A DNA stretch of 64,000 nt. Source: Nitrobacteraceae bacterium AZCC 1564 (GTDB taxonomy: Bacteria > Pseudomonadota > Alphaproteobacteria > Rhizobiales > Xanthobacteraceae). The translations under genes and the position numbers were made by a program. Location of the stretch: contig JBAGRR010000001.1 of NCBI GenBank assembly GCA_036924835.1, positions 2,247,001 through 2,311,000 on the forward strand. Direction: 5' to 3'. Of this stretch, positions 3,606-59,760 are shown piece after piece (the stretch's first letter is position 1; every line of letters starts with the position of its first letter). The notes beneath the pieces are model-generated. The model was given only the letters and a program-made list of their open reading frames with translations. It had not been told where the DNA came from and made no database searches.

Positions 3606-3767
3606 CTAGTGTGGTGGTTCAGAGGTTCGGATCCGAGGAAACCGCAAGCGCGTGCGAACTTCAGAATCGGGACACCAGAATCATAAATTTACCAGTGTCC
3701 TCTCGAATCCAAAGTTCGCTACGGAGCGCGCTGCACGATAAGGCGAACTTTGGATTCGGGACACTAG
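3606..3767. repeat. CTAG twin-hairpin repeat, locus 1 (first unit a hybrid)
   Basis: Two hairpins at 3606-3678 and 3692-3767 separated by a 13-nt spacer AATCATAAATTTA. The second is intact: the CGAATCCAAAGTTCGC inner arm pairs perfectly with its partner, the outer GTGTCC/GGACAC stem ends in CTAG, and a 3-nt TCT bulge faces the spacer. The first unit has a left arm of the GTGTGGT type but a right arm of the GGGACAC type, so its arms no longer match. It looks like a recombinant of two unit types. The terminal CTAG at 3764-3767 supplies the TAG stop of the yqaA-like gene on the minus strand. Confidence 0.9.
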
Positions 3768-4345
3768 AATAGCCTGAAGGCAATGATGAAACCGATGATC
3801 AGGGCGCCTGCTCCAATGCTCACCCACATACCGAGCCGTTTCTCGATGGCTTCGCGAATCCAGGTGCCATAACGGTTAAGCAGCACCGCCACGAAGAAAA
3901 ACCGCCCGCCCCGCGCAATGACTGAGAGCACCACAAACAGGAACAGATTGTAGTCGGCGAAACCCGACGTGATCGTGACGATTTTATAGGGAATGGGCGT
4001 CAGGCCTTTGAGCAGGATGATCCAGGCCCCGTACTCAGCATAGGCCGCCCGAAATGCCTCGACCTTTTCGCCGTAGCCATAAAGCTGGATCAACCACTGC
4101 CCGACGGAGTCGTAGAGCAGCGCCCCAATGGCGTAACCCAGCACGCCACCAGCGACCGATGTGATGGTGCAAACCAGCGCATACAGCCACGCCTTCTGCG
4201 GCCGCGCGAGCGACATCGGAATCAACATCACATCCGGCGGGACCGGAAAGAACGAACTTTCGGCGAACGAGACAGCTCCCATCAACCAGAGGGCATAGGG
4301 CTTGTCGGCGGCGGCGATACACCAGTCATACATTTTTTTCAGCAT
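3764..4345 (-). CDS. YqaA family (DedA/VTT-like) membrane protein
   Basis: A 193-residue inner-membrane protein with about five hydrophobic segments. The SFAESSFFPVPPDVMLIPMS motif and the later GLTPIPYKIVTITSGFA motif are the two re-entrant-loop signatures of the SNARE-associated/VTT superfamily, here of the shorter YqaA subgroup. DedA-type relatives take part in lipid carrier recycling and envelope homeostasis; no role is established for YqaA. ATG 4345 (MLKKMYDW) matches the usual family start; ATG 4360 would add five residues. Its stop codon TAG lies inside the CTAG end of a hairpin repeat, so the repeat abuts the coding sequence exactly. Confidence 0.88.
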   Translation of the reverse strand: MLKKMYDWCIAAADKPYALWLMGAVSFAESSFFPVPPDVMLIPMSLARPQKAWLYALVCTITSVAGGVLGYAIGALLYDSVGQWLIQLYGYGEKVEAFRAAYAEYGAWIILLKGLTPIPYKIVTITSGFADYNLFLFVVLSVIARGGRFFFVAVLLNRYGTWIREAIEKRLGMWVSIGAGALIIGFIIAFRLF

Positions 4346-4409
4346 GGCGCGATGAACCATCGTCCAGCGGATTTGTCCATGGATGGAATTGTGTCGAAGC
4401 TGCGAAAAA

Positions 4410-4871
4410 TCAGCGCCGTTTCTTTAGACGGCCACTTTCGCGCGCGACAATTGGTCGCCGGGCTGCAAGCTCGGGAGCCACTGGGGCTTTTTTAAGTTTC
4501 GGAGCGGAATCTGAAGCCGGCGCGACAACGCGGGACTTGATCGCTGTTGCCTTGGTAGGCGACTTGGGAAGCTTCTCGGCAATCCCCTGAGCCCGCTCGC
4601 GGCGGTCCATCTCGTCCCACACATCCTGAGGCTTAACCCCGGCTGCGGCCCATAGCACCGAAAGATTGTAAAGTAGGTCCGCGCTTTCCCGGACAACCGC
4701 CTGCGGATCGCCGCTGACGGCGTCAATGACGACCTCGATGGCCTCCTCGGCAAGCTTCTTGGCCATCTTGGCCGGGCCGCGTTGAAACAGCCGTGCGGTT
4801 CGCGACGTCGCCGGATCGAGATCCTTGGCCGCAATTACCGCTCGATAAAGCCGTTCCAGCGAATCGCTCAT
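4410..4871 (-). CDS. hisE: Phosphoribosyl-ATP pyrophosphohydrolase, stand-alone, with C-terminal extension
   Basis: A 153-residue protein whose first ~105 residues form an all-alpha MazG-like HisE domain: KLAEEAIEVVIDAVSG and RESADLLYNLSVLWAAAGV carry the Glu/Asp residues that bind magnesium and pyrophosphate. HisE converts PR-ATP to PR-AMP in histidine synthesis. Two things are odd. No other his gene is nearby, and a ~45-residue basic Ala/Pro/Lys tail ending in GRLKKRR follows the domain, which the family usually lacks. It may be a second HisE or a housecleaning nucleotide pyrophosphatase. The start follows a weak ribosome site. Confidence 0.82.
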   Translation of the reverse strand: MSDSLERLYRAVIAAKDLDPATSRTARLFQRGPAKMAKKLAEEAIEVVIDAVSGDPQAVVRESADLLYNLSVLWAAAGVKPQDVWDEMDRRERAQGIAEKLPKSPTKATAIKSRVVAPASDSAPKLKKAPVAPELAARRPIVARESGRLKKRR

Positions 4872-5002
4872 TGAAAAACCTTAGGGCAAATCCATCCACA
4901 GCGTGTTAACAAGTCGGCTTTCAACCGGATGAATGCCTAAAAAAGCAAAAAATCGCCAGCATTTCCCGGCGATTGGCTCGCGCAGGCAAAGCCTTCCGGG
5001 CG

Positions 5003-5410
5003 TCAGTAATCCCAGTAGCCATCGCCGTCATAGGGCGGGACCCCGTAGCCGTAATAAGCTGGACCCCCGTAATAGTGGCCGCCGTAGTAGGGGCTACCGC
5101 CATAAAAATAGTGCTGCCGATAGTAATCGCGGCGGCGCTGTTCAGCCACGATGGTCCCGATCGTGCCGAGCGCCAGGCCCATAAATGCGAGACCCGCGGC
5201 GTTGTTATGGCGGTAGTGCCGCCGAGCCACGCGGCGGCGGGCGCTGAAGTCGGTGGCCTCGCCCGCGACAGCGGGCGAGGTGCTCGCATCCTTCGCAACC
5301 GGCGCAGCGGGGCGCGCCTGGGCGGCAGGGACGATGGCGCCCAGAGTCAGGGCTGCGACGGTCGTCAGAACCACGCCTCTGCGGAAGGAAGAAATCTTCG
5401 GTCCGAACAT
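5003..5410 (-). CDS. Secreted Gly/Tyr-rich protein
   Basis: A 135-residue protein with a signal peptide (about residues 1-32, ending ...AAQARP). A basic RRRVARRHYRHNN stretch follows, then a short hydrophobic helix (AAGLAFMGLALGTIGTIVA). The C-terminal 45 residues are dominated by Tyr and Gly with repeats such as YYGGHYYGGPAYYG. Proteins of this design are common and uncharacterised in Bradyrhizobium-group genomes. The hydrophobic helix suggests outer-surface or membrane association. No catalytic motif is visible. Confidence 0.72.
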   Translation of the reverse strand: MFGPKISSFRRGVVLTTVAALTLGAIVPAAQARPAAPVAKDASTSPAVAGEATDFSARRRVARRHYRHNNAAGLAFMGLALGTIGTIVAEQRRRDYYRQHYFYGGSPYYGGHYYGGPAYYGYGVPPYDGDGYWDY

Positions 5411-5622
5411 TTCAGGTCCTCATCATCAAGTGCCGGCCGGCATGGGCCCAGTAAAATCCTTAGCCTACATTGGGTTCCCCAATCCCAAATGCAGGCTGAA
5501 CGATCAGTGGCAAAATCAAGGCAATCTGTTACCAAAAGTCGGAGCAGTGGCAAGCGGTCGCGGGTACGTCTATGGCTGGAGTCATCAAACAAACATACCA
5601 AGCGTACAAAATATCATCGCAT

Positions 5623-5789
5623 CTAGTGTGCTGGTTCAGAAGTTCGCTCCATCTTTCCCCGCGAGTGCTTCCAGCTAACTTCTGAACCTGAACCACACGA
5701 AATCATGAATTTACTAGTGTCCTCTCGAATCCAAAGTTCGCTACAGAGCGCGCTGCACGATGAGGCGAACTTTGGATTCAGGACACTAG
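5623..5789. repeat. CTAG twin-hairpin repeat, locus 2
   Basis: Hairpins at about 5623-5698 and 5714-5789 with a spacer containing AATCATGAATTTA. The first has inner arm GGTTCAGAAGTT pairing with AACTTCTGAACC; its distal CTAG is degenerate (CACGA). The second has the perfect inner arm CGAATCCAAAGTTCGC and the outer GTGTCC/GGACAC stem. The pair ends 26 bp before the start of the solute-binding protein gene, so its transcript or promoter region must include the repeat. The stretch 5411-5622 upstream holds no gene that I can support. Confidence 0.92.
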
Positions 5790-5815
5790 GACCTTCAGGT
5801 CTCAAGCCAAGCATC

Positions 5816-6856
5816 ATGTTGAAGCGTCCGACTACCTCCCTCCCCGCTGCCCTCTTCTCGCTGATTGCCTTGTTATGTGTCCTCTGCTCCGGTTTAAGCG
5901 GAGCACACGCCTCAACCGCCATCCGATTTTCACTCGACCGGCCAATCGACGGCGCGGCCGCCCCGTTTGTCTTGGCTTCGGTGACAGATCTGTTCCGCGC
6001 AGAAGACCTGACGGTCACGCTCGATTCCGCCAACGGGTCGGATGATGCGATTGCGCGCGTCGCATCAGGCGCGAGCGACGTGGCGCTGGCCGACATCAAT
6101 GCTTTGATCCGTTACCGCGACAAGGAAAATGCTCAATCGATCAAGGCCGTGTTCGTGCTGTATAACAAGGCCCCTTATGCCGTGATTGCGCGCAAGAGCC
6201 GCGGCATCAAATCGATGGCGGACATTGAAGGCAAGACCATCGGTCTGGTCGATAATGATCTCGCCGCGAAGCTCTGGCCCGCCGTTGCCCGTCGTAACCA
6301 TATCGATCTCGGCAAAGTGAAAGCCGAAAAAATCAATGCCGCCGTGCGAGAACCTATGTTGTCAGCCGGACAACTCGATGCGGTCACCGGTTTAGCATTG
6401 CTGTCCGCGATTAACCTGCGCGATCGCGGGGTTCCTGCAAACGACCTGACGGTTCTGCGATTTGCCGACTTCGGATGTCTGGCTTACGGCCATGCACTGA
6501 TCGTCAATCCCGCCTTCGCGGCGAAGAATCCTGAAGCTGTGAAAGCATTCTTGCGCGCGACGATGTCCGGCGTGCGGATGACCATCAAAAGCCCGGAACA
6601 TGCGATCGACATTGTCATGACGCGAATGAACAACGGCTCGCGCGACATCGAACTCGAGCGGCTGCAGGCAAGCATTCATGACAACATTATCACCAACGAA
6701 GTGAGGCAGAATGGTCTTGGCGGGATCGAGACGCATCGCTTCGAGGCAGCAATGGATCAGATCGCGGAAGGCTACACATTTCGCAAACGCCCGTCATCGG
6801 CCGACATTTTCGATGAAAGCTTCCTGCCACCGGCAGACGACCGCAAAATCAATTAA
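5816..6856 (+). CDS. ABC transporter substrate-binding protein, NMT1/THI5-like
   Basis: A 346-residue periplasmic binding protein. The signal peptide runs to about residue 31 (FSLIALLCVLCSGLSGAHA). The body shows the NMT1/SsuA pattern: a VLASVTDLFRAEDLTVTL strand-helix, then GKTIGLVDNDLAAKLWP and a FGCLAYGHALIVNPAFAAKNPEAVKAFLRA hinge region. Relatives bind thiamine pyrimidine precursors, sulfonates, nitrate or taurine; the ligand here is unknown. No cognate permease or ATPase gene adjoins it: the next gene, ndvA, is a self-contained exporter. ATG 5816 was chosen because codons upstream of it belong to the hairpin repeat. Confidence 0.88.
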   Translation: MLKRPTTSLPAALFSLIALLCVLCSGLSGAHASTAIRFSLDRPIDGAAAPFVLASVTDLFRAEDLTVTLDSANGSDDAIARVASGASDVALADINALIRYRDKENAQSIKAVFVLYNKAPYAVIARKSRGIKSMADIEGKTIGLVDNDLAAKLWPAVARRNHIDLGKVKAEKINAAVREPMLSAGQLDAVTGLALLSAINLRDRGVPANDLTVLRFADFGCLAYGHALIVNPAFAAKNPEAVKAFLRATMSGVRMTIKSPEHAIDIVMTRMNNGSRDIELERLQASIHDNIITNEVRQNGLGGIETHRFEAAMDQIAEGYTFRKRPSSADIFDESFLPPADDRKIN

Positions 6857-6949
6857 GCACATCTCCAACCATCGCTGTATTCCTCCTAGCCCTCAGGTTA
6901 GGCTATCGTTTTGGCAAGTCTGGTCCGTGTGATCATCGAGCAGCCGCCC

Positions 6950-8713
6950 ATGCCCCTTATTCGCTTGTACATTCGCGTTCTCGATTTGCTCGGCAAGGAA
7001 GCGCGTCTCGGCTGGCTGCTCGCCGGCGCCAATTTGCTGCTGGCCATAGCGCAATTCGCCGAACCGGTCCTGTTCGGACGCATCGTTGACGTGCTGTCGG
7101 CGACACCCGCCGCCGGCGCCGAGCCGCGATCGCCCTGGCCGCTACTGGGCGCGTGGGTTGCCTTTGGATTGTTCACGATCGTCTGCAGCGCAGTGGTTGC
7201 CCTGCACGCTGATCGCCTCGCCCATCGTCAACGCCAGACGGTGCTGACTGACTATTTCGAGCACATCATGCAGCTGCCGCTGACATTCCACAGTGGCACG
7301 CATTCCGGCCGTCTCATGAAGGTGATGCTGCAAGGGACGGATGCGCTGTGGCGGCTATGGCTCAGTTTCTTCCGTGAGCACTTCGCGGCAATCGTCTCGC
7401 TGATGGTGCTGCTGCCGCTGTCGATCTACCTGAATTGGCGGTTGGCCATCCTGCTGTTCGTGCTGTGCGTCATCTTCACGGTGCTGACGACACTTGTGGT
7501 GCGCAAGACCTATAGCTTGCAGATGCAGGTCGAAGAACACTACGGCGACCTTGCCGCTCGAGCGTCCGATGCACTCGGCAACGTCGCGCTGGTGCAAAGC
7601 TTCGTGCGCGTCGATGCAGAAGTGCAGGGACTGCGTGGCGTCGCCGACAAATTGCTGTCGGCTCAGCTTCCGGTGCTGTCCTGGTGGGCACTGGTCGTGG
7701 TCATGACTCGCGCATCCACCACCATCACCATCCTCGCAATCTTCGTCGTCGGCATCATCCTGCACGGACATGGACTCGCGAGCGTCGGCGAGATCGTGAT
7801 GTTCGTGAGTTTCGCCACGATGCTGATCCAGAAGCTTGAGCAGGTTGTCAGTTTCATCAACAACGTCTTCATGGAAGCCCCTCGCTTGCGCGAATTCTTC
7901 GACGTGCTCGACGCTGTTCCCGCCGTGCGTGATCGGCCGGACGCTATCGATCCAGGCCGGCTGCAAGGGCTTGTGGAATTCAACGATGTGACATTTTCCT
8001 ACGATGGTAAGCGGCCGGCTGTGGAAGACGTGTCCTTCACCGCACTGCCGGGCCAAACCTTTGCACTTGTCGGCGAAACGGGGGCCGGCAAATCCACGGC
8101 GATCGCCCTACTTCACCGCGCGTTCGATCCGCAGTCCGGCTTTATAAAGATCGACGGGATGGACGTGCGGGGCATGACGCTCACCTCGCTGCGTCGAAAC
8201 ATTGGTGTGGTGTTTCAGGAAGCGCTGTTGTTCAACCGCTCGATTGCCGAGAACCTGCGCGTCGGCAAGCCCGACGCGACCGACGCTGAATTGCGCGCTG
8301 CAGCCGAGGGGGCTCAAGCCTTGGACTTCATAGAGCGCAGCGAGATGAAATTCGAAACGAATGCAGGGGAGCGCGGCCGCATGCTGTCCGGCGGCGAACG
8401 CCAGCGGCTGTCAATCGCACGCGCGTTGCTGAAGAATCCGCCAATCCTGATCCTCGATGAAGCGACCAGCGCTCTCGATGCGGTCACCGAGGCAAAAGTG
8501 AACGCCGCTCTCGATACTGTGATGAAGGGCCGGACGACGTTTGTGATTGCCCACCGGCTCTCGACGATTCGCAGCGCGACCAGGATCCTCGTGTTCGACA
8601 AAGGCCGCATTGTGGAAAGTGGAACGTTCGATGAACTTGTCGAAAATGGCGGCTATTTCGCCAAGCTCGCAAAGGCGCAGTTCATGGTGCAAGAGGAAGC
8701 TGGCACTGAGTAG
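6950..8713 (+). CDS. ndvA: Cyclic beta-1,2-glucan exporter, ABC permease/ATPase fusion
   Basis: A 587-residue half-transporter, the usual NdvA/ChvA length. Six hydrophobic segments fill residues 20-310. The ATPase half has Walker [10 protein letters not shown], the signature LSGGERQR, Walker [13 protein letters not shown] and the H-loop histidine in [10 protein letters not shown]. The membrane domain contains [16 protein letters not shown], as in NdvA. It works as a homodimer exporting cyclic glucan to the periplasm for osmoadaptation and host interaction. ATG 6950 gives the family N-terminus ([15 protein letters not shown]); the TTG at 6911 adds residues unlike the family. The cyclic glucan synthase gene is not in the window. 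Confidence 0.92.
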
Positions 8714-8966
8714 CCCCACCGCCAGCAGTTCTCGATACAAAGTCGTGAGGTCGTGCACAGGGTGTGGGCAACCGTCGAAATTTGGCCCACTTCCTGCTTA
8801 AATGAAGCCTTGACCCACTATGCCGGACCACTGCTCCGGTATAAGTATTGATCTCGTTGCCGCGCCGAGATGGCGGCATGGTCGCATCGCACATCCGAAC
8901 GCTACACGCCGAGGACGCCATGACTTCATTCGCCGCAGGCGTGCTTTCAGAGATCGGAATCGGATA
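8714..8966. other. Intergenic, no gene seen
   Basis: About 250 bases between ndvA and the carboxypeptidase gene. The carboxypeptidase frame stays open back to ATG 8820, but that part is Arg/His-rich and would push the signal peptide to residue 60. It more likely holds the promoter. No clear terminator for ndvA. Confidence 0.4.
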
Positions 8967-10484: not shown

Positions 10485-10490
10485 GATCGC

Positions 10491-10658
10491 CTAGTGGTCC
10501 GATTCTAACATTCGCATCCTATTTCGGCAGGCACCTCCGCGAATGTTAGAATCAAAGGACCCCTAGCAAATATAAGTTTCTAGTGGAGTTTTGGATTTGA
10601 CATTCGCTTGACGAATTCGCGGCCAGATTGGTAGCGAATGTCAAATCCACTCCACTAG
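10491..10658. repeat. CTAG twin-hairpin repeat, locus 3
   Basis: Hairpins at 10491-10566 and 10580-10658 around the spacer CAAATATAAGTTT. Unit 1: outer GTGGTCC against GGACCCC, inner GATTCTAACATTCGC paired with GCGAATGTTAGAATC, 3-nt bulge AAA on the 3' arm. Unit 2: outer CTAGTGGAGT/ACTCCACTAG, bulge TTT on the 5' arm, inner GGATTTGACATTCGC fully paired. Relative to loci 1 and 2 the spacer is reverse-complemented and the stem sequences differ, but the geometry is identical. It begins 6 bp after the carboxypeptidase stop and ends 146 bp before fadD. Confidence 0.93.
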
Positions 10659-12502: not shown

Positions 12503-12532
12503 TCAACCAACTCGCAAATAAGACGCGCCTGC

Positions 12533-13084
12533 ATGAGAAGACCGGACACTAGGCCCGAAGATATTCTGGATTTCTGGCGTGCTGCGGGCCCTGAGCGCTG
12601 GTGGACCAAGGACGCCGCGTTTGATGCTGAAGTGCGTGACCGCTTCACACAGGTGTGGGACGCGGCACGGAGCGGACAACTGTCAGCATGGCAAGCAAGC
12701 GACAATGGCGCGCTCGCGCTCGTTATCGTGCTCGACCAATTTCCGCGAAATATCTTTCGCAGTGACGCGCGCGCATTCTCGACCGATGCTATGGCTCGCG
12801 AGGTCGCGGCTCGGGCCATCGCCGAAGGATGCGATCATCGCATCGAAGCCGACTTACGTGCCTTCATGTATTTGCCGTTCATGCACTCGGAAAATCTCGC
12901 CGATCAGGAGCGTTGCCTAGCGCTGCTTCATCAATCGGGAGACGAGGAAAACATCAAATTTGCGCAGCAGCACGCCGACATTATTCGGAAGTTTGGCCGC
13001 TTTCCTCATCGCAATCCGATCCTCGGCCGCGAGATGAAGCCTGAGGAAGCTGACTTTCTCAAGAGCGGCGGCTTCGCTGGCTAG
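12533..13084 (+). CDS. DUF924 family protein
   Basis: A 183-residue helical (TPR-like) protein with the family hallmarks: ILDFWRAAGPERWWTKDAAFD at the N-terminus, LALVIVLDQFPRNIFR in the centre and FMYLPFMHSENLADQ followed by FAQQHADIIRKFGRFPHRN. No biochemical function is established for the family. It lies 30 bp after fadD on the same strand and is probably cotranscribed. Its TAG stop (13082-13084) is part of the CTAG that opens the repeat array at 13081. Confidence 0.9.
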   Translation: MRRPDTRPEDILDFWRAAGPERWWTKDAAFDAEVRDRFTQVWDAARSGQLSAWQASDNGALALVIVLDQFPRNIFRSDARAFSTDAMAREVAARAIAEGCDHRIEADLRAFMYLPFMHSENLADQERCLALLHQSGDEENIKFAQQHADIIRKFGRFPHRNPILGREMKPEEADFLKSGGFAG

Positions 13085-13572
13085 TGTGGTGGTTCAGAAG
13101 TTCGCTTCATTCTCTCCGCGAATCCTTCAAGCGAACTTCTGAACCTGAACCACATGAGTGCCGTGGATTTGAAGTTCTTCCAGGGTAAACCGCAAGCTCG
13201 ATGAAGAACTTCAAATCCAAAAGCGGCACTCAAATCATAGATTTGCTAGTGTCCTCTTGATTCCGAAGTTCGCATCTGAGCAAGCCGCAAGCCTGTGCGA
13301 ACTTCGGAATCGGGACACTAGAATCATACGTTACTAGTGTCCTATCGATTCCGAAGTTCGCTACGGGACGCGCTGCACTATGAGGCGGACTTCGGATTCA
13401 GGACACTAGTGTCCCGGTTCTGACATTCGTATTAGACTGCGGCTAGCTCGTTTGCGAATGTCAGAACCTAAGGGACACTAGCAAAATATGAAGCTAGTGC
13501 GGTTTTGGATCTGACGTTCGTATGATGGACCAGCGGTTAATACTGATACGAACATCAGATCCACCGCACTAG
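13081..13572. repeat. CTAG hairpin array, six consecutive units
   Basis: Six hairpins in a row: 13081-13155, 13155-13232, 13246-13321, 13334-13409, 13406-13481 and 13494-13572. Units 4 and 5 share one CTAG. Outer stems differ: GTGTGGT, GTGCCG, GTGTCC, GTGTCC, GTGTCCC and GTGCGGT, each matched by its complement (GTGTGGT is partly eroded at its distal end). Inner arms likewise change together. Unit 2 lacks the CTAG ends (TGAGTG...CACTCA). Bulges lie on the 3' arm in units 1, 2 and 5 and on the 5' arm in units 3, 4 and 6. The array fills the gap after the DUF924 gene; 13573-13688 beyond it holds no gene. Confidence 0.95.
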
Positions 13573-13688: not shown

Positions 13689-13857
13689 CTAGTGGTCCGA
13701 TTCTAACGTTCGCATCCCGTCTCGGCGGGCACTCTTGCGAACGTTAGAATCGAAGGACCACTAGCAAACATAAGATTCTAGTGGAGCTCAGGGATTTGAC
13801 GTTCGCATCACGAATTCGCGGCAAGCTGGGTAGCGAACGTCAAATCCGCTCCACTAG
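13689..13857. repeat. CTAG twin-hairpin repeat, locus 5, abutting the flippase start
   Basis: Hairpins 13689-13764 and 13778-13857 with the spacer CAAACATAAGATT. Unit 1: outer GTGGTCC/GGACCAC, inner GATTCTAACGTTCGC fully paired, bulge GAA on the 3' arm. Unit 2: outer GTGGAGC/GCTCCAC, bulge TCAG on the 5' arm, inner GGATTTGACGTTCGC fully paired. Compared with locus 3, both arms of the inner stem change A-T to G-C together (ACATTCGC to ACGTTCGC), a clean compensatory pair. The final CTAG ends 4 nt before the flippase start codon. Confidence 0.95.
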
Positions 13858-41467: not shown

Positions 41468-41623
41468 CTAGTGTGATGGTTCAGAAATTTGCTAGATTTT
41501 TCCCGCGCGTCCTTCCAGCAAACTTCTGAAACTGAACCACCATGGATTTGCTAGCGTCCTCTCGGACCCAAAGTTCGCTACAGACCGCGCTGCACGGTGA
41601 GGCGGTTTGATTCGGGACACTGG
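41468..41623. repeat. CTAG twin-hairpin repeat, locus 6 (degenerate)
   Basis: A first hairpin at 41468-41541 (GGTTCAGAAATTTGCT arm; AGCAAACTTCTGAA partner, with mismatches) and a second at 41551-41623 whose 3' arm has lost about eight bases (GGCGGTTTGATTC where GGCGAACTTTGGATTC is expected). Ends are CTAG at the left and CTGG at the right. It appears to be a decaying copy beyond the end of ureG. Confidence 0.85.
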
Positions 41624-42306: not shown

Positions 42307-42445
42307 TTAGTGTGGCGGTTCAGAAGTTCACCCGATTTTTCCTGCGAGTCCTTCTGGCGAACTTCTGGACCAGCGTCCTCTCGAATCCAAAGTCCGCTGC
42401 GGAGCGCGCTGCACGATGAGGCGGACTTTGGATTCGGGACACTAG
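42307..42445. repeat. CTAG twin-hairpin repeat, locus 7 (fused by internal deletion), inside the ure operon
   Basis: The left hairpin starts TTAGTGTGGCGGTTCAGAAG (42307) but its 3' end, the spacer and the start of the second unit are missing: GAACTTCTGGACC runs straight into AGCGTCCTCTCGAATCC. The second hairpin is complete to CTAG at 42445, with its inner arm changed on both sides (AAGTCCGC/GCGGACTT instead of AAGTTCGC/GCGAACTT). It lies between ureF and ureG, so it is transcribed with the operon. Confidence 0.9.
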
Positions 42446-44091: not shown

Positions 44092-44258
44092 CTAGTGTGG
44101 TGGTTCAGAAGTTCGCTTTATTTTCTCTGCACGCACTTCAAGCGAACTTCTGAACCTGAACCACACTAGAATCATAGATTTGCTAGTATCCTTTCGAATC
44201 CGAAGTTCGCTACAGGGTGCGCTGCATGATGAGGCGAACTTCGAATTCAGGACACTAG
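44092..44258. repeat. CTAG twin-hairpin repeat, locus 8, inside the ure operon
   Basis: Hairpins 44092-44169 and 44183-44258 around the spacer AATCATAGATTTG. Unit 1: outer CTAGTGTGGT/ACCACACTAG, inner GGTTCAGAAGTTCGCTT perfectly paired, bulge TGA on the 3' arm. Unit 2: outer CTAGTATCC/GGACACTAG (one mismatch), inner GAATCCGAAGTTCGC with one mismatch. It fills the gap between ureC and the ABM gene and would be part of the operon mRNA. Confidence 0.95.
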
Positions 44259-44262: not shown

Positions 44263-45978
<1,716 letters not shown>

Positions 45979-53183: not shown

Positions 53184-53712
53184 GCGATTATCTCCCTGAC
53201 GCAGACGTGAAACGCGATGAGACGGCCCTGGGCCGGCTGCGGTAAGGGAATCGCAAGAAGTATGCCACCTGCTGAAATTTCAACAAGCCATTGCTACAAC
53301 TAGGGAATTTCATATTTCAAGCGAACAGCGCCACCAGTCCGCCTTATTTTTAGGCGCCCTGCCTGAGTGCGAAGGCAGCACAATGCTCATAAAATAACCA
53401 GATCGAGCGCGACGACTAAATTTTCAGCACGAAACCACAGGCCGGCGATCATGAAATCATCAACCCAATCAGCGCGTTTGTCCGAAACAGCGGACATTCA
53501 CCTTGAAAGCGCCGCCTTCCTGTTCCATATCAACGCCGCGACCTTGAGAATCGTCAGGTCTTTGCGAGCCGCGTGTTCTGATCCCGTTTTGCGGTTTCTG
53601 GCTTGCTTTTCAGCTAACCGAAACCGACACCCCAGACACGCGGGTGTCCCCGACACCGCCCGTACCCGACATGATGTCCGGCGCGCGCAATGACTCATAG
53701 AAAGACCTGCTT
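53184..53712. other. Long intergenic region between urtA and the helicase gene
   Basis: 529 bp with no supported gene. It contains the urtA leader and sigma-54 promoter (53252-53267). Upstream of that is an AT-rich stretch 53270-53330 with TTGAAATATGAAATT on the minus strand, where an NtrC-type enhancer might lie. The remaining ~350 bp form the leader side of the helicase gene, possibly a cold-responsive 5' UTR. Confidence 0.45.
53252..53267 (-). promoter_or_regulatory. Sigma-54 promoter of the urt-ure unit
   Basis: Minus strand TGGCATACTTCTTGCG fits the RpoN consensus TGGCAC-N5-TTGCA/T with the invariant GG (-24) and GC (-12) at correct spacing. It points at urtA 68 bp downstream. Nitrogen-limitation control by NtrC is the natural inference. 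Confidence 0.82.
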
Positions 53713-55143
53713 TTGACTTCTTTCCAGGATTTCGGGCTAGCCGATCCAATCTCGCGTGCTCTTAAAGAAGAGAATTATCACACGCCCACCCCTATCCAGG
53801 CACAGACCATTCCCATCGCGATGACCGGCCGAGACGTCATCGGAATCGCCCAGACCGGCACCGGAAAAACGGCGTCGTTCGCGCTGCCGATCCTGCATCG
53901 CCTACTGGAAAGCCGCATCAGGCCACAACCGAAGTCCTGCCGCGTTCTGGTGCTGAGCCCAACCCGGGAGCTCTCCGGACAGATCCTCGACAGCTTCAAC
54001 GCTTACGGCCGGCATCTCAGGCTGACGTCCGCACTTGCCATTGGCGGCGTACCGATGGGCCGTCAGGTCCGCTCGGTCATGCAAGGCGTCGAGGTGATGG
54101 TTGCCACGCCAGGACGCCTGCTCGACATGGTTCAAGGCAACGCCCTGAAGCTTGGCCAGGTAGAATTTCTAGTGCTCGATGAAGCGGACCGCATGCTCGA
54201 CATGGGCTTCATCAACGACATCCGCAAAATCGTCGCCAAATTACCGATCAAACGCCAGACTCTGTTCTTCTCGGCGACCATGCCGAAAGACATTGCCGAT
54301 CTCGCGGAACAGATGCTCCGCGATCCGGCCCGGGTTTCAGTGACGCCGGTGTCATCCACCGCCGAGCGGATCGACCAGCGCATTATCCAGGTCGACCACA
54401 CAGCCAAGCCGGCCATTCTGGCGCAACTCCTGAAAGACGAGCCGGTTAACAGGGCTTTGGTGTTCACACGCACCAAACACGGCGCCGACAAGGTGGTAAA
54501 AGGTCTCGCCAAGGTGGGCATCGCTGCGGAGGCAATTCACGGCAACAAGTCGCAGAACCATCGCGAACGCGTGCTGACAGCCTTCCGCTCCGGCGACATC
54601 CGCACGCTGGTGGCGACCGATATCGCCGCGCGCGGTATCGACGTTGACGGCATAACCCATGTGGTCAATTTCGATATTCCGAATGTTCCGGAAACATATG
54701 TCCATCGCATTGGACGGACAGCGCGCGCAGGCGCCGATGGCGTGGCCATCTCTCTCTGCGCCGGCGAGGAACACACTTACGTGCGCGACATTGAAAAACT
54801 GATCCGCATGAGCCTTCCGAAGGAAGATCGCCGTACGCCCGGCCAGCAACGCCCGGCGGCGGCCATCTCATCGCAGCATCGTTCCGCACGGCCAGCGGCA
54901 AACGGCCATGGACCTCGCGCGAACGACGCGGCACCCGGCTCACAGGGTCCAAGGCGGCGGCGCCGGCGTCCGGGGGCGGGTAATGCACCTCACGCCACCC
55001 GGCACGAAGCCAGCCGCCAGGAGACTTCCCGTCCATCACAGGGCGGCAACAACAAGGGCGAGGGAATTCAGGGCGTCGCGTTTCTGCACCGCGAAAATCG
55101 TCCTGCCCAAGCTCAGCGCAACCAGCGCCCACACCGTTCATAG
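53713..55143 (+). CDS. rhlE: DEAD-box RNA helicase, RhlE type
   Basis: A 476-residue helicase. All motifs are present: Q motif [20 protein letters not shown], Ia [53 protein letters not shown]. The last ~110 residues are a basic Arg/Gly/Pro/Gln tail for RNA contact. The only plausible start is TTG 53713 ([17 protein letters not shown]); the first ATG would remove the Q motif. RhlE helicases remodel structured RNA and ribosome precursors, often in the cold. It is followed by infA and cspA. Confidence 0.94.
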
Positions 55144-55177
55144 TCAGATCAACTATCTAGAGGACTTGGAGACCCCT

Positions 55178-55462
55178 ATGGCGAAAGAAGAGTTGATCCA
55201 GTTCGAAGGACTGGTCACGGAAATCCTCCCCGACGCACGTTATCGCGTCCAGCTTGATGCCGGACATGAGATCGTGGCTTACACAGCCGGTAAGATGAAG
55301 AAGAACCGCATCAAGACGCTGGCCGGAGACCGGGTCACGATCGAGATGTCGCCCTATGACCTGGAAAAAGGCCGCCTCATCTTCCGCCACAAGGACGAGC
55401 GTCCGAGCGGCGGACCTCCTCGCGGTGCACCTCCCCGCGGCGGTCAATTCCGGCGCCGTTAA
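55178..55462 (+). CDS. infA: Translation initiation factor IF-1 with C-terminal RG/P-rich tail
   Basis: A 94-residue protein whose first ~72 residues are a standard IF-1 OB fold: [40 protein letters not shown] and [19 protein letters not shown]. It occupies the ribosomal A site during initiation. IF-1 normally ends there; here ~20 extra residues rich in Gly, Pro and Arg follow ([17 protein letters not shown]). It is 34 bp after the helicase gene. A second, plain infA probably exists elsewhere, so this may be a specialised paralog; ATG 55178 follows AGAGGACTTGGAG. Confidence 0.93.
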
Positions 55463-55734
55463 TAGACCGGCGCGCCATTCCCCCATCGCGCACGGCTGTT
55501 CCTTGCGCGATTCGGCTATTTCAGCCGCACTGGCGGATGATTAATATTTGGCGCACGTCAGGATTGTTTTGAAAGCATATCTCACGTAATATAGGGGCAT
55601 CGATCTTCGGCCGGACGACACTCGCTATCCACCGGTACAGCCGGGTTAGCGCTCGACCTCTTCCAAATTTCGATCTCACCAGCCCATTTAACCGTGGGCT
55701 TCTACTATATCTATCTCGAGAAGGACTACCCCAC
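55463..55734. other. Leader region of cspA
   Basis: 272 bp without a gene. It contains an AT-rich patch near 55541-55590 suitable for a promoter and ends with the ribosome site AAGGAC before cspA. Long cold-shock leaders often act as thermosensing RNA; no conserved cold box was identified. Confidence 0.4.
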
Positions 55735-55947
55735 GTGAGCATGGGAACAGTGAAGTGGTTTAACGCAACCAAAGGCTACGGCTTCATTCAGCCGGATGAT
55801 GGCGGCAACGACGTGTTCGTTCACATCAGCGCTGTCGAGCGCGCCGGTCTTGGTACGCTGCGCGAAGGCCAGAAGATCAGCTACGAAATCGTTGCGGATC
55901 GCCGTTCGGGCAAGTCGTCGGCTGACAATCTCCGCGCCGCCGGCTAA
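55735..55947 (+). CDS. cspA: Cold shock protein, CspA family
   Basis: A 70-residue OB-fold RNA chaperone with RNP1 KGYGFIQ and RNP2 DVFVHIS, and the usual [15 protein letters not shown] opening. It melts mRNA structure, typically in the cold. The start GTG 55735 lies eight bases after AAGGAC and gives MSMGTVKW; ATG 55741 is the alternative. Flanked downstream by a strong intrinsic terminator. Confidence 0.95.
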
Positions 55948-55991
55948 GTGAAATTTCCGCGGCTCCGTTCGCGGAAACCAGAGCAAAAAAC

Positions 55992-56021
55992 AAAAGGCCG
56001 TGCACACTGCACGGCCTTTTT
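55992..56021 (+). terminator. Intrinsic terminator of cspA
   Basis: AAAAGGCCGTGCA pairs with TGCACGGCCTTTT around CAC, followed by further T. The A-rich left side also lets it act on the convergent minus-strand pilin gene ending at 56056. Confidence 0.92.
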
Positions 56022-56055
56022 CAATTTCGCTGTCGTGCCCGCTCTGAACCAACTA

Positions 56056-56646
56056 TCAGCTGCAAGATGGCGCCGAAGGATCCCAGCGGACGTCGGCCGA
56101 TTGACGGGGGCCAGAAAAGGTCTTCCTGTCCCAATGGAAGATTTCAGAGTTAAAATTCGACTTCCCATCAAACCCGATCAAGGGTTGATAGTCATAGTGC
56201 ACCTCACTCATGATTAGATATTTGCCGTCCAGCGCAATCCCGCTGGGCACCGCCACAACGTTACCCTGCGAGTGAGGGGTCTTTCCTGGACTTGCTTTAC
56301 TCCACACGATGGTCGCTTGATGCGTCGTGGGGTCGATATAAACTTCGGAAATCGTCGCCGTCAGGCTTGCAGCCGAATAGGGCGACATAATCGCGGTACC
56401 GACTTTCAAAGCATTCTTAATGTCACAGTCGCCGGCCGTGGTGGCCTGAGCAATCAAATCCGACATGGTGTGTGCGACCTGCGTCAGCTTTCGAGCGGCT
56501 GCAAATGCGCTGGTAAACTGCACCGTTCCAAACATCAATGCCAACAGCAGCGGAGCAACAAGCAGAAATTCGACGGCGGCTACGCCGTGCTGGTCTTTAA
56601 GAAAGCGCGCGCCGAGACGCGGCTCAGTTTCAGAACTCGTTGTCAT
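56056..56646 (-). CDS. TadE-like minor pilin (second)
   Basis: A 196-residue protein with a prepilin-like N-terminus: a short basic leader, then GVAAVEFLLVAPLLLALMFG, where Glu sits five residues into the hydrophobic helix as in TadE/TadF pseudopilins processed by the prepilin peptidase. The C-terminal periplasmic domain ends with a Cys (APSCS). It starts next to the stop of the upstream TadE gene (GTG 56649 or ATG 56646), so the two are translationally linked. Probably a minor pilin that helps Flp pilus assembly. Confidence 0.85.
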   Translation of the reverse strand: MTTSSETEPRLGARFLKDQHGVAAVEFLLVAPLLLALMFGTVQFTSAFAAARKLTQVAHTMSDLIAQATTAGDCDIKNALKVGTAIMSPYSAASLTATISEVYIDPTTHQATIVWSKASPGKTPHSQGNVVAVPSGIALDGKYLIMSEVHYDYQPLIGFDGKSNFNSEIFHWDRKTFSGPRQSADVRWDPSAPSCS

Positions 56647-56648
56647 CA

Positions 56649-57218
56649 CTATCCCCCTGGCTCAACCCGGAACGCAGCCACTGCTGTGAGAAGGTTAAAT
56701 CGATCGCTATCGTTGTTGCCTCCAGCAAGATTGGCGAGGCTGAATCCTCCAATACTGAGGAATATCGGCCATTTATAAAACGCGCGAACAATGACCGTGG
56801 AGCCTGGGGCCGGATTTGAATAGGAGAGATTTGTCTTCAGGTGCTTGCTCGAATCGATTGGGGCCGCAAGCGCGTCGTTAGGAATGGCGCTAAACTGCGA
56901 AAAAACGCCGACATCCACCTCCAAACTATTTTGACAATCGAATAAAAGCGCCACTTTTCCGCAAACCGCTTTTTTAAAATCGTCCGCTTTAAACCCTTGG
57001 GCTTGAGCCTGGTTCGTGAAAATCAATCGCGCGGCGTCCTGGGTCGCGGTTTCCAAAACCTGCCCTGCGAAAAACATCAGCGCAAATTCAAAAATCGCGA
57101 GCAGCATCAGAAAAAACGGAGCTGCGACCATGGCGAATTCGATCGCAGCAGATCCACTCTGGCTGCGGCGAAAGCGATGAAATATCTTGCTGATACCACC
57201 TGAAGAGATTGAGGGCAT
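56649..57218 (-). CDS. TadE family minor pilin (first)
   Basis: A 189-residue protein with a TadE N-terminus: basic leader (KIFHRFRRSQSG), then SAAIEFAMVAAPFFLMLLAIFE with the conserved Glu after the cleavage site, and FAGQVLETATQDAARLIFTNQ, typical of TadE. Two cysteines (AVCGKV and FDCQN) may pair. ATG 57218 (MPSISSGG) is preferred. Transcribed with the following TadE-like gene, on the strand opposite to flp-cpaA-cpaC. Confidence 0.88.
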   Translation of the reverse strand: MPSISSGGISKIFHRFRRSQSGSAAIEFAMVAAPFFLMLLAIFEFALMFFAGQVLETATQDAARLIFTNQAQAQGFKADDFKKAVCGKVALLFDCQNSLEVDVGVFSQFSAIPNDALAAPIDSSKHLKTNLSYSNPAPGSTVIVRAFYKWPIFLSIGGFSLANLAGGNNDSDRFNLLTAVAAFRVEPGG

Positions 57219-57358
57219 TTGACGATTCCGGAGTGAAGCAGCGTTGCTACCTCCGAGAATAAGCAACATTGATTGTCGAATGCTTTCGCTCGTTCAAGAC
57301 AACGCGCAACGCCGCGTTATCGAGTCATTAACCACCAATGGCACGCGCGATCTCTGAT

Positions 57359-58183
57359 TTAACCGCCGTCGCTCACCACTTTTTTCCGGCAGGTCGACTT
57401 GCAATCGTATATGGCACGTTCATCACCACGATAGACATTCACAAGATTCTCCGCTCCCTCCTCCTCAGGCTTCGCATTAGACGCGTTGGCGTCGACAAGG
57501 CTGCGTAAGGCTAGCGATAGAGTTCCACTCTGACGCGCCCTGGCCAACGCCTCTGATTGGCGTGGCTTGAGCTCCAAAGTCGCGGTCTTTCCGACAACGA
57601 CCTTTTGTCCGTTCTTCTCTTCAACTGCCTGATCGATGGCGAGAACCCGGATATTGGTCAGAAGGGTCTCGGAAGTTATGGTTTCCTTTCCACCCTCGGC
57701 ATTTCTCTGCCGACGGGTCAAAATGACGTCCACGCGGTCATTGGGAAGAATAAAGCCGCCAGCCCCCGTTTCCGGCGAGATCTCGGTCGAGACAGCCCGC
57801 ATACCGCTTGGCAGGATGGCTGCCATGAAACCTGATCCATCGCCCTTAACGAGTTTGGTATCCCGAACCGGCTCTCCAGCAAGCATGGGCGAACGTACAA
57901 TCGAACCGGTCAATTGGGTGACGGCATCACCCCGACTTTCACGATGAATAAAGCTCGCGCTTGCAGTGGCGGCAGGCCAGGACTGCCACTCCAGGTCTTC
58001 AGGCTTAATCGATTGACCCAATCCGATATCGGATTTGGCAACCAGCACATCTGTCGTCTTGATCTGGGGCGGGGGCGCTATCGTCACTTGCGCCGGCTTC
58101 GGAGCCGGGCCACTCGCCAAATACAAAGCCGCACCACCAGCAGCTACGGCAATGGCCAACACGACTACCTGCGCGGTCTTCAT
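57359..58183 (-). CDS. cpaB: Flp pilus assembly protein CpaB (RcpC-like)
   Basis: A 274-residue protein anchored by an N-terminal helix (VVVLAIAVAAGGAALYLASG), then a SAF/AFP-like beta-clip (TTDVLVAKSDIGLGQSIKPEDLEWQSWP divided between strands at GLGQSI), and the RcpC domain with GGFILPNDRVDVILTRR. CpaB supports the CpaC secretin in the periplasm. In most tad loci cpaB is in line between cpaA and cpaC; here it is inverted and divergent from flp across 406 bp. The C-terminus has an unusual CKSTCRKK pair of cysteines. Confidence 0.92.
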   Translation of the reverse strand: MKTAQVVVLAIAVAAGGAALYLASGPAPKPAQVTIAPPPQIKTTDVLVAKSDIGLGQSIKPEDLEWQSWPAATASASFIHRESRGDAVTQLTGSIVRSPMLAGEPVRDTKLVKGDGSGFMAAILPSGMRAVSTEISPETGAGGFILPNDRVDVILTRRQRNAEGGKETITSETLLTNIRVLAIDQAVEEKNGQKVVVGKTATLELKPRQSEALARARQSGTLSLALRSLVDANASNAKPEEEGAENLVNVYRGDERAIYDCKSTCRKKVVSDGG

Positions 58184-58589
58184 ACGCTTTACTCTCTTAC
58201 GCTACGCAACAGCCGCACCATGTGCCTGCCAATACGCGGCAAGTAGGGTGCCAGACATAGCAAATCTGACGTTAATTGATGAATGAACTGCAAACAGCGC
58301 GTTTCGTGGCCACCGGTACTTATCCAACCGAACTACGAACCTCTGCCTGATAAATGACAGCGGGTACTTCATCACGCCCGATAATTGCGACCAGTATAAT
58401 TTTATATAAATTATCTGCGCTCATTAATTGCGCATTTACCGTCCGCAAGAAGAGCCAAATACCCCTGTCTTTCAGCAATCGAATTAACTGCGCTGCAATT
58501 CCTCCCTCGTACGTTCACGTCATGGTCACGGTGGTTTCCGCCCCGCAACGACCAAAGTTCGACAGCCACGTGTACATAGGGAGTCATAA
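58184..58589. promoter_or_regulatory. Divergent regulatory region between cpaB and flp
   Basis: 406 bp without a gene. The centre (58390-58440) is very AT-rich (AGTATAATTTTATATAAATT) and is the most probable promoter area for flp or for both directions. No known operator was recognised. A ribosome site AGGGAG precedes flp. Confidence 0.45.
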
Positions 58590-58772
58590 ATGACCAATCT
58601 CATTGCTCGCTTCGTTAAGGACGAGTCCGGTGCCACCGCGATTGAATACGGTTTGATTGCCGCCGGAATCGCATTGGCGATCATCACGATCGTGCAGACG
58701 ATCGGCGGCCAGATTCTTGGTCGGTTTACTTCGCTCAGCACCGAGCTGGCCAAGACACCGACTGCGCAGTAA
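58590..58772 (+). CDS. flp: Flp-type IVb major pilin
   Basis: A 60-residue prepilin: leader MTNLIARFVKDESG, cleavage after Gly14, then ATAIEYGLIAAGIALAIITI with Glu and Tyr at positions +5 and +6, the Flp signature, and a short C-terminal tail. Polymerises into the adhesive tad pilus. Its own terminator follows at 58795, so it can be expressed far above the downstream assembly genes. Confidence 0.96.
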   Translation: MTNLIARFVKDESGATAIEYGLIAAGIALAIITIVQTIGGQILGRFTSLSTELAKTPTAQ

Positions 58773-58794
58773 TCGGAGACAACAACTGCGTACG

Positions 58795-58828
58795 AAAAGG
58801 CTTCGGTCCCCCGAAGCCTTTTTTTTTT
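58795..58828 (+). terminator. Intrinsic terminator of flp
   Basis: AAAAGGCTTCGG and CCGAAGCCTTTT pair around TCCC and are followed by a run of at least five more T. One of the best terminators in the window. Confidence 0.94.
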
Positions 58829-58860
58829 GGGGAGCGTTCTCTCTATCGAACTGAGTCAAT

Positions 58861-59001
58861 ATGCGTATGAGTCAGGCCGCCTCAAAACAGCAGCCAAAGC
58901 CCGGGCCAGCAACGCGTGAGCTCCAGCCAACTGTCCTTGTGTGCGCGACGCTCATTCTCGCGTCATTACTGGTTTTGTTTCGGATCGCGAGCATCTTGTG
59001 A
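58861..59001 (+). CDS. Possible 46-residue single-helix protein between flp and cpaA
   Basis: A short open frame of 47 codons: polar Gln/Pro/Lys-rich N-terminus (SQAASKQQPKPGPATREL) then one transmembrane helix (TVLVCATLILASLLVLFRIA) and a stop. Codon use is normal for the region and the topology is sensible, but no strong ribosome site precedes either of the two nearby ATG codons (58861 and 58867). It could be an accessory of the pilus locus. Not recognised. Confidence 0.45.
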   Translation: MRMSQAASKQQPKPGPATRELQPTVLVCATLILASLLVLFRIASIL

Positions 59002-59074
59002 AAGCTGTTTCGCGATTGTTCATATCCGTACTTTACGATGCAGGACTTGTTGAACAGAAACTGAAGCCCAGTCC

Positions 59075-59599
59075 ATGATACTCGACATTGCACGTCTCTT
59101 TCTGTTCCCGGCCTTGATCGCGTTCGCTGCGGCGAGCGACCTCCTGACGATGACCATTTCGAATCGAGTGTCCTTGTTTCTGATTGCGGGCTTTTGCGCG
59201 ATGGCAGGATTAAGCGGGATGCCGCTCCATGACGTCGGGATGCACGTTGGAGCGGGTTTTGCCGTGCTAGCCCTCGCATTTGCCTGCTTCGCCTTTGGAT
59301 GGATTGGAGGCGGCGATGCGAAAATCGCGGCCTGCGTGGGGCTTTGGTTCGGCTTCCCGCACCTGCTGAACTATTTCGTCTATGCTTCGCTATTCGGCGG
59401 CGCGTTGACACTTTTGCTGCTTGAGTTCCGGAAATGGCCTCTTCCCTATGCGCTCGGCTCACAGGAGTGGCTACTGCGGCTCCACGGCAAGGATAGCGGC
59501 ATTCCCTACGGCATCGCGCTCGCCATGGGCGCCTTGATGATCTATCCGGAAACGGAATGGATGAAAGCAATTGATCTTGCTTGGCTCCTCGGTCACTAG
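59075..59599 (+). CDS. cpaA: Prepilin peptidase CpaA (A24 family, TadV-like)
   Basis: A 174-residue membrane aspartyl peptidase with about five helices. The catalytic Asp residues are in AASDLLTMTISNRVS and WIGGGDAKIAACVGLWFG, the two A24 motifs. It cleaves Flp and the TadE-like pilins. No N-methylation domain, as expected for the short CpaA class. Its TAG stop (59597-59599) is the CTAG of a hairpin repeat, so the coding sequence ends exactly at the repeat boundary. Confidence 0.94.
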   Translation: MILDIARLFLFPALIAFAAASDLLTMTISNRVSLFLIAGFCAMAGLSGMPLHDVGMHVGAGFAVLALAFACFAFGWIGGGDAKIAACVGLWFGFPHLLNYFVYASLFGGALTLLLLEFRKWPLPYALGSQEWLLRLHGKDSGIPYGIALAMGALMIYPETEWMKAIDLAWLLGH

Positions 59600-59760
59600 T
59601 GTGGCTGTTCAAAAGTCCGCATCATTCGTGCGGCGAGTCTGGAACGCGGACTTCTGAACCAAAGCCACACTAGATTAATAACTTGCTAGTGTTCTTCGAT
59701 TCCGAAGTTCGCAAACGAAGGTGCCGCGCAACGATGCGAACCTCGGAATCGAGACACTAG
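59596..59760. repeat. CTAG twin-hairpin repeat, locus 9, within the tad locus
   Basis: Hairpins 59596-59673 and 59686-59760, spacer ATTAATAACTTG. Unit 1: outer CTAGTGTGGC/GCCACACTAG; inner GTTCAAAAGTCCGC versus GCGGACTTCTGAAC (one mismatch). The inner arms have switched TTCGC/GCGAA to TCCGC/GCGGA on both sides, and the outer pair T-A to C-G. Unit 2: GTGTTCTTCGATTCC against GGAATCGAGACAC, slightly eroded; inner CGATTCCGAAGTTCGC pairs with one mismatch. Confidence 0.93.

What the first reader, a model, noticed from the sequence alone, without database searches (positions are those of the whole stretch)
3606..59760. A dispersed family of CTAG-bounded, bulged twin hairpins whose stems covary between copies
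Nineteen or so hairpins of 75-80 bp occur at nine intergenic places. Most units share one architecture: CTAG, a 9-10 bp outer stem, a one-sided bulge of about 3 nt, a 15-17 bp inner stem ending in TTCGC/GCGAA, and a 20-26 nt loop. The primary sequence of both stems changes widely while complementarity holds. Outer stems seen: GTGTCC/GGACAC, GTGGTCC/GGACCAC, GTGTGGT/ACCACAC, GTGGAGC/GCTCCAC, GTGGAGT/ACTCCAC, GTGCGGT/ACCGCAC, GTGCCG/CGGCAC. Inner examples: GATTCTAACGTTCGC, GGATTTGACGTTCGC, GGTTCAGAAGTTCGC, CGAATCCAAAGTTCGC, each with its exact complement. Units pair head-to-head around a 12-13 nt spacer, and in intact pairs the bulges face the spacer. Such covariation is expected of an element kept for its folded form (single-stranded DNA for a Y1/RAYT-type transposase, or RNA), not of an ordinary dead repeat. 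No mobilising gene is in the window.
Basis: seen in the sequence. Interest (0 to 1): 0.9.

Follow-up and report, generated by a model that had tools for sequence, protein, structure and literature searches.

The report
Twin-hairpin jumping DNA at CTAG
Hundreds of short twin-hairpin DNA elements sit between the genes of this bacterium at the letters CTAG; their outer ends match those of a common family of jumping genes (IS630), whose enzyme most likely moved them, and each hairpin is such an end followed by an inverted copy of itself that is about three letters out of register.

Summary
I count 22 hairpins at nine places in the window; the same genome (5.99 Mb) holds 731 strict CTAGTG...CACTAG units against 40 for the reversed control pattern. 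The unit of dispersal is the pair (about 167 bp): hairpin, 12-14 nt spacer, hairpin. Bulges face the spacer in 103 of 107 distinct pairs. Stems covary strongly (20 of 25 base pairs, 0 of 500 shuffles), but one-sided changes show no G-T preference, so folded RNA is unlikely. Pairs sit at CTAG, often at a C-TAG stop codon; at one gene junction 28 of 28 same-genus relatives lack the element and 4 keep the bare CTAG. The RAYT/Y1 idea is not supported: no Y1 gene in this genome or in 10 of 14 other twin-bearing genomes. Instead, IS630-family insertion sequences carry the same ends: one Roseomonas end is identical over 25 of 25 bases, and 7 of 17 loci match at both ends. Outer arms keep IS630 spacing (208 of 214); inner arms are shifted by 2-4 nt (209 of 214). 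Best reading: a non-autonomous, fold-back IS630 derivative whose mobiliser was not found in this genome. New variant of a known kind.

The parts
3606..3767 (+). twin of family A-B: hairpin 3606-3678, spacer 3679-3691, hairpin 3692-3767; inner CTAGs decayed to CCAG
5623..5789 (+). twin A-B: hairpin 5623-5700, spacer 5701-5713, hairpin 5714-5789; its left CTAG supplies the TAG stop of ORF 4973-5626
10491..10658 (-). twin D-C, reversed: hairpin 10491-10566, spacer, hairpin 10580-10658
13081..13409 (+). host twin A (13081-13158) ... spacer 13322-13333, B (13334-13409), with a guest twin F-E (13155-13321) inserted at the inner CTAG of A
   Evidence: same nesting elsewhere
13406..13572 (-). twin G-H, reversed, tandem with the previous one and sharing its CTAG (13406-13409)
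13689..13857 (-). twin D-C, reversed: hairpins 13689-13764 and 13778-13857
41468..41623 (+). decayed twin A-B (second hairpin from about 41551)
42307..42445 (+). decayed twin A-B with the spacer lost
44092..44258 (+). twin A-B: hairpin 44092-44169, spacer AATCATAGATTTG, hairpin 44183-44258
59596..59760 (+). twin K-E: hairpin 59596-59673, spacer 59674-59685, hairpin 59686-59760

Best explanation
The twins are short non-autonomous transposons, about 167 bp here, that most likely were moved by IS630-family (Tc1/mariner-type) transposases acting on their two outer ends and inserting them at CTAG. Shown: the outer arms are 25-26 bp IS630-type ends with IS630 spacing; each hairpin is such an end plus an inverted copy shifted by 2-4 nt (usually 3); pairs, not single hairpins, are found dispersed and nested, and they sit at CTAG. 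Inferred: IS630 enzymes duplicate the TA inside CTAG, so the two CTAGs are one target copied. Inferred: the 3-nt shift (the 'bulge') spoils the inner copies as cleavable ends, so that only the outer ends are used and the pair, not the single hairpin, jumps; the inner copies may act as second transposase-binding sites or let the ends fold back. Inferred: stems differ between families because each lineage followed a different IS630 transposase, which forces both arms to change together. The mobiliser seems to be absent or lost in the window's genome.
For: Ends: a weight matrix from 129 distinct outer arms (positions 7-26, CTAGTG left out) scores IS630 ends up to 26.1; the highest of 1142 control CTAG ends outside hairpins is 4.3. 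Of 17 IS630 loci examined, 7 pass at both ends (three left ends only narrowly, 4.9 to 6.6), 6 at one, 4 at none. The Roseomonas mucosa end (L425) is identical to a twin arm over 25/25; Bradyrhizobium barranii (L427) has one A-like and one B-like end. The four enzymes tested score as IS630 in NCBIfam (259-277 bits, cut-off 100), three of them as DDE_3 in Pfam. Spacing: outer arms 208/214 and IS630 ends 21/21 at offset 0; inner arms 209/214 at +2 to +4. Unit: 103/107 distinct pairs with the bulge geometry; decayed partners of singles; 15 of 17 four-hairpin clusters are one whole twin inside another at an inner CTAG, 2 are tandem (read by eye); in genome G116 the 40 scored places (of 65 candidates) of a compact 121-bp twin span at least 117 of 121 positions in 37 cases and 103-116 in 3. 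Target: 28/28 same-genus relatives lack the twin at one gene junction, 4 of them keep the bare CTAG; 25 of 80 genes ending in C-TAG have a twin there, and 0 of 138 clusters lie inside a predicted gene. IS630 preference for TA within CTAG: title of Tenzen and Ohtsubo 1991 in the reference list of PMC2170065, and TA duplication in its abstract (passages).
Against: No intact IS630 gene with matching ends was found in the window's genome: one 100-aa DDE_3 fragment only, with no matching end nearby. Of 15 twin-bearing genomes tested, 9 have no DDE_3 match at all, so twin number does not follow the supposed enzyme. Four IS630 loci (L386, L421, L422, L423) have other ends. Seven of the loci (L425-L431) were fetched because they resemble the L390 end region, so one of their two ends is not independent evidence; of the seven chosen by protein (L416-L422), four pass at both ends and one at one end. 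IS630 ends have no inverted inner copy (7-11 of 16 matches), so the twin is not a plain deletion product. Nothing shows that the inner arms cannot be cut, that the hairpins form, or that any copy still moves; among 128 pairs in 1.2 Mb no two are over 96.4% identical. The G116 search scored 40 of 65 candidates, so lone hairpins among the rest are not excluded.
Confidence: 0.75

Rival explanations
1. A REP/BIME-like element mobilised as single-stranded DNA by a Y1 (RAYT) transposase that reads the folded hairpin and its bulge.
For: Bulged hairpins, paired in inverted order, often just after genes, with an IHF-like spacer, as in E. coli RIB/BIME-1 (recalled); bulge and tetranucleotide matter for E. 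coli TnpA_REP (PMC8266576, passages). Four of 14 other twin-bearing genomes do have a Y1 gene.
Against: No PF01797 in this genome, nor in G116 with its many similar copies, nor in twin-rich G013, G027, G074; no CTAG hairpin at 17 Y1 loci. REPs carry an unpaired GTAG or CGTC at one end (PMC3733652); here CTAG is at both ends and paired. The arms match IS630 ends.
Confidence: 0.06
2. A structured RNA or mRNA 3'-end element kept by selection for its folded RNA.
For: Strong covariation; stems vary 2.4 to 8.2 times less than loops even between nearest copies; twins lie close after stop codons (median 19 nt from 3' ends against 76 nt from 5' ends).
Against: No excess of G-T over A-C among one-sided changes, as expected for DNA arms, not for folded RNA. 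35 of 138 clusters lie between divergent genes. Position at stop codons follows from the CTAG target.
Confidence: 0.07
3. Stems are kept perfect by hairpin-templated correction during replication, a mutational process without any function, acting on old dead copies.
For: Paired changes outnumber one-sided ones in one family (120 against 75 cells; in the other 109 against 162, of which 54 come from one column with a split consensus); loops change faster than stems in near neighbours.
Against: The 2-4 nt shift survives in 209 of 214 hairpins, though such correction should erase it; outer arms keep IS630-type sequence and spacing across many genera.
Confidence: 0.1

Closest known systems
IS630 family of insertion sequences (Tc1/mariner superfamily; examples ISY100, ISMex18)
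   Same: Terminal arms, their spacing, and the CTAG setting.
   Different: Twins have no gene; each end is followed by an inverted copy shifted by about 3 nt, which the 21 IS ends examined lack.
Bacterial MITEs such as RUP and Nezha (listed as MITEs in PMC3733652; their link to IS630-type enzymes is recalled)
   Same: Short, gene-free, intergenic, with IS-type ends, moved in trans.
   Different: As recalled, those have one pair of terminal repeats; the twin has four arms in two hairpins, left and right hairpins differ in sequence, and the linker is conserved.
REP, BIME and REPIN elements with RAYT transposases
   Same: Many intergenic, inverted, bulged hairpins in many sequence families.
   Different: No Y1 enzyme in this genome, no unpaired GTAG or CGTC tag, much longer hairpins.
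RIB/RIP (IHF-binding BIME-1) of E. coli (recalled; title of Boccard and Prentki 1993 seen in the references of PMC5082802)
   Same: Two inverted palindromes around an IHF-like linker: 34 of 128 spacers match 8 of 9 fixed IHF positions against 1.9% of shuffled spacers (consensus recalled).
   Different: Different sequences (recalled) and, by the ends, a different mobiliser; IHF binding untested.
Br-REP1 and Br-REP2 of Bradyrhizobium (PMC5082802, passages read)
   Same: Repeated palindromes in 3' regions of related bacteria.
   Different: The printed consensus sequences share neither CTAG borders nor the arms described here (compared by eye).

Membership tests
Non-autonomous IS630 (Tc1/mariner) element | terminal repeats like those of an IS630 element | tested here: met
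   Weight-matrix scores of IS630 ends above all 1142 control CTAG ends at both ends in 7 of 17 loci and at one end in 6; none in 4; 25/25 identity in L425.
Non-autonomous IS630 (Tc1/mariner) element | insertion at TA (here within CTAG) with a short target duplication | tested here: met
   Orthologous empty site with one CTAG in 4 of 28 relatives, CTAG on both sides of the twin in the own genome; nested insertions at CTAG. Whether 2 or 4 bp are duplicated cannot be told from sequence.
Non-autonomous IS630 (Tc1/mariner) element | an IS630 transposase in the same genome that moves it | tested here: not met
   Only a 100-aa DDE_3 fragment in the own genome; 9 of 15 twin-bearing genomes have none. 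Not required for a relic, but the link is by ends only.
Non-autonomous IS630 (Tc1/mariner) element | simple internal deletion of a parent IS | tested here: not met
   The 21 IS630 ends examined have no inverted inner copy.
REP / RAYT system | Y1_Tnp (PF01797) gene in the genome, flanked by the repeats | tested here: not met
REP / RAYT system | unpaired GTAG (or CGTC) tag at one side of the hairpin | tested here: not met
   CTAG at both ends, forming the base of the stem; definition from PMC3733652.
RIB / BIME-1 | IHF site between two inverted palindromes | tested here: inconclusive
   Spacers match the recalled IHF consensus better than shuffles (mean 6.5 of 9 against 5.4), but none of 128 matches all nine; binding not testable here.
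Known structured RNA (Rfam) | match to an Rfam family | tested here: not met
   Only 5_ureB_sRNA elsewhere in the window.

The most novel reading that the evidence does not exclude
A new design of bacterial transposon, the fold-back twin: each end carries a working IS630-type end and an inverted copy set out of register, the two ends are joined by a linker that IHF would bend, and the whole folds into a four-armed synapse that forces the enzyme to use only the outer ends and favours landing in the linker of other twins. Many twin lineages across Alphaproteobacteria would record, in their covarying stems, a long chase after changing IS630 transposases.
Probability: 0.35. Interest if true: 0.78.

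Novelty: new variant of a known kind. Interest (0 to 1): 0.6.

Why it matters
It gives an identity to a very abundant repeat (1.8% of the 1.2 Mb sampled) that occurs in many Alphaproteobacteria and for which my searches found no name (paper searches listed under Tried and rejected). It shows that strong covariation can come from paired transposon ends and need not mean a structured RNA. If the out-of-register inner copies do block misuse of the ends, this is a simple sequence rule by which a parasite DNA with four similar ends moves as one piece.

Tried and rejected
Autonomous copy in the own genome: arms searched in 1.2 Mb of 6.0 Mb; 611 arms, 578 paired, 33 solo; of the 23 solo arms printed I saw none bracketing a gene. 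Gene families recurring beside twins in other loci: only families of a kind common everywhere, none recognisable to me as a mobiliser (not annotated). Y1/RAYT. DDE_Tnp_1 (IS4/IS5): found in 8 of 16 genomes, not following twin number; CTAG hairpins lay near two of the loci, L407 (a twin beside an IS fragment) and L408 (not examined further). Loop-loop pairing of the two hairpins: the loop core GCNGC is conserved (223 of 438 hairpins against 37 with shuffled loops), but its central bases are not complementary between partners (15 of 53, shuffled mean 15.1). Strand bias: 58 against 44 twins in one replichore, p 0.20. Phage carriage: 10 contigs with true twin-type hairpins among the 36 viral contigs printed, by eye; the rest are other repeats; not pursued. 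Papers: eight answered searches of the held open-access library listed no paper on CTAG twin hairpins that I recognised from titles and abstracts; most subscription papers are not held, among them the original RIME paper, so RIME was not compared. What I saw of papers: PMC3733652 part 1 of 8 plus passages; passages only of PMC8266576, PMC2873474, PMC2573895, PMC2170065, PMC5082802.
Full report
What is there. CTAGTG is fourfold over-represented in the window (35 against 8.0 expected). Reading the sequence around these sites by eye gives 22 hairpins at nine places. In the whole genome (one contig, 5,994,409 bases; window at 2247001-2311000) the pattern CTAGTGN{55,80}CACTAG has 731 matches against 40 for the reversed control. 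In 1.2 Mb (580-1780 kb) I found 289 hairpins, 1.8% of the sequence, in 138 clusters: 28 single, 89 double, 3 triple, 17 quadruple and one of six. Strict counts in 28 same-genus genomes run from 0 to 88; of 8 genomes of other genera in the family, three have 48, 3 and 94 and five have none; of 24 from other families of the order, 19 have none and five have 1 or 2, which look like chance matches. A covariance model of one hairpin (R1, 55 sequences) finds it in 14 of 239 other genomes of the class, with filters that lose weak matches. Three contigs in that list are labelled Bacteroidales or Chloroflexi (L064, L102, L087); by eye the first two are unrelated sequences.

The unit is the pair. One search parsed 361 unit entries and 122 adjacent pairs from all loci, some of which overlap; without duplicates there are 312 units and 107 pairs, of which 103 have both bulges facing the spacer (27 of 28 own, 76 of 79 others). 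In one orientation the spacer reads AATCATAnnnTTG and the two hairpins belong to different sequence types (28 pairs from the own genome, 9 from its genus or family, 70 from named other genomes). Of 27 apparent singles in the window and the first 400 kb, nearly all have a decayed partner at the right place; the clear exceptions are one whose partner was lost and one truncated (by eye). In genome G116, of another family, a compact 121-bp twin with 4-nt loops has 40 scored places (of 65 candidates) at 85-100% identity, none of them a lone hairpin.

How it sits in the genome. Of 17 quadruple clusters, 15 read as one whole twin inside another at one of the host's two inner CTAGs (for example 817310, 1342544, 1622452) and 2 as tandem neighbours sharing an outer CTAG (classed by eye). 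A preference for the inner CTAGs is suggested (two-sided p 0.002), but five of the 15 are the same combination (A-B with guest F-E), so the events are not all independent. None of 138 clusters lies inside a gene by a 60% overlap rule; 23 are between convergent, 35 between divergent and 80 between same-strand genes (with gene calls from a crude predictor of mine). Of 80 genes ending in C-TAG, 25 have a twin whose CTAG is that stop codon (24 by the tighter rule). At one such junction (by my reading of the translations, surA-pdxA) all 28 same-genus relatives match without the twin; 4 of them (G009, G016, G017, G024) keep CTAG at the same stop codon.

Covariation and its meaning. On a MAFFT alignment of 55 diverse hairpins (chosen from 71 non-redundant ones), 98.3% of cells pair and 20 of 25 pairs change on both sides; no shuffle reaches any measure, and slid structures pair at 28-39%. 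The change is almost purely Watson-Crick. Within two families of the own genome (55 and 45 copies), both-sided changes are 109 and 120 cells, of which 105 and 116 are Watson-Crick pairs; one-sided changes are 162 and 75, with G-T 25 and A-C 47, and G-T 29 and A-C 25. RNA selection would favour G-T. In the first family 54 of the 162 one-sided cells come from a single column where the consensus is split, so its one-sided count is inflated. Loops change 2.4 to 8.2 times faster than stems between nearest copies, and 3.3 and 6.6 times among pairs at least 92% identical. Copies that simply decay after insertion should not show this; either many source lineages existed or stems are still maintained. 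I cannot decide between these.

The mobiliser. Y1_Tnp is absent from the own genome and does not follow twin number. Searching the DDE_3 family gave the lead: an IS630 gene in genome G127 ends in CTAGTGTCCTGAACCGGAAGTTCGC, which has the form of a twin arm (23 of 25 bases shared with the closest one), and an IS630 in genome G002 has CTAGTGG borders with otherwise different ends. Loci around further IS630 genes on named plasmids were then read. A weight matrix from 129 twin outer arms, without the CTAGTG positions, puts 7 of 17 loci above every one of 1142 control CTAG ends at both ends (L416-L419, L426, L427, L430; the left ends of L417-L419 only narrowly), 6 at one end (L390, L420, L425, L428, L429, L431) and 4 at none (L386, L421, L422, L423). 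For each IS side the best of all TA starts within about 300 nt was taken, which favours a match somewhat over the single-site controls. L425-L431 were fetched by DNA similarity to the L390 end, so their matching left ends are partly chosen; L416-L422 were chosen by protein alone, and 5 of those 7 pass at one end or both. The proteins tested are IS630 by NCBIfam (four) and DDE_3 by Pfam (three).

The key anatomical point. In twin outer arms the inner core of the end stands at the same distance from CTAG as in IS630 ends (208 of 214, and 21 of 21); in the inner arms it is 2-4 nt further away (209 of 214, 145 of them exactly 3). So the 'bulge' is an extra 2-4 nt in the copy that faces the spacer. 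IS630 ends themselves have no such inverted copy (7-11 of 16 matches, against 14-16 in 203 of 214 twin hairpins). I infer that the inner copies cannot serve as ends, which would explain why pairs and not hairpins move. What the inner copies do is open: second binding site, folded end, or something else. Rare one-sided changes fall equally on outer and inner arms (43 to 39 and 25 to 34), as expected of decay after insertion.

Spacer and loop. Spacers resemble the IHF consensus WATCARNNNNTTR (recalled): 34 of 128 match 8 of its 9 fixed positions against 1.9% of shuffled spacers, none matches all nine. Loops carry a GCNGC core (223 of 438 against 37 in shuffled loops), or GATATC in a few pairs. 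Neither has an explanation that I could test.

Limits. The mobiliser is inferred from ends and target; no intact matching IS630 was found in the own genome, and 9 of 15 twin-bearing genomes lack DDE_3. Among 128 pairs in 1.2 Mb the closest two are 96.4% identical, so movement here is probably not recent. The species of the window was not determined.

Noticed in passing
window 45537-45822 (+): Rfam 5_ureB_sRNA match, 104 bits, unrelated to the hairpins.
   Followed up: no
hairpin loops, for example window 13265-13310: Loop core GCNGC is conserved (223 of 438 hairpins against 37 in shuffled loops); a few pairs have GATATC instead. Function unknown.
   Followed up: partly
own genome 591551, 627800, 671897, 1137617: Hybrid hairpins with one arm of each type (B arm with A arm, and similar), probably recombination or deletion between the two hairpins of a twin.
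   Followed up: no
L386:1355-2827: Full IS630 of 1473 bp in a same-genus genome with ends CTAGTGGTTCATCACAGTGATT, nearly identical (98.9%) to one on a Bradyrhizobium plasmid: a second IS630 lineage set at CTAG with different ends.
   Followed up: partly
L345, L351, L352, L357, L360, L367, L369: Contigs classed as viral that carry true twin-type hairpins; could be prophage or misbinned host DNA.
   Followed up: no
genome G116, for example L266:4935-5055: Compact twins with 4-nt loops, copies up to 98% identical: the best place to look for a still active system.
   Followed up: partly
window 59879-61600: Protein resembles plasmid-borne type II/III secretion (Flp pilus) genes of Rhizobiales, under 60% identity.
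   Followed up: no
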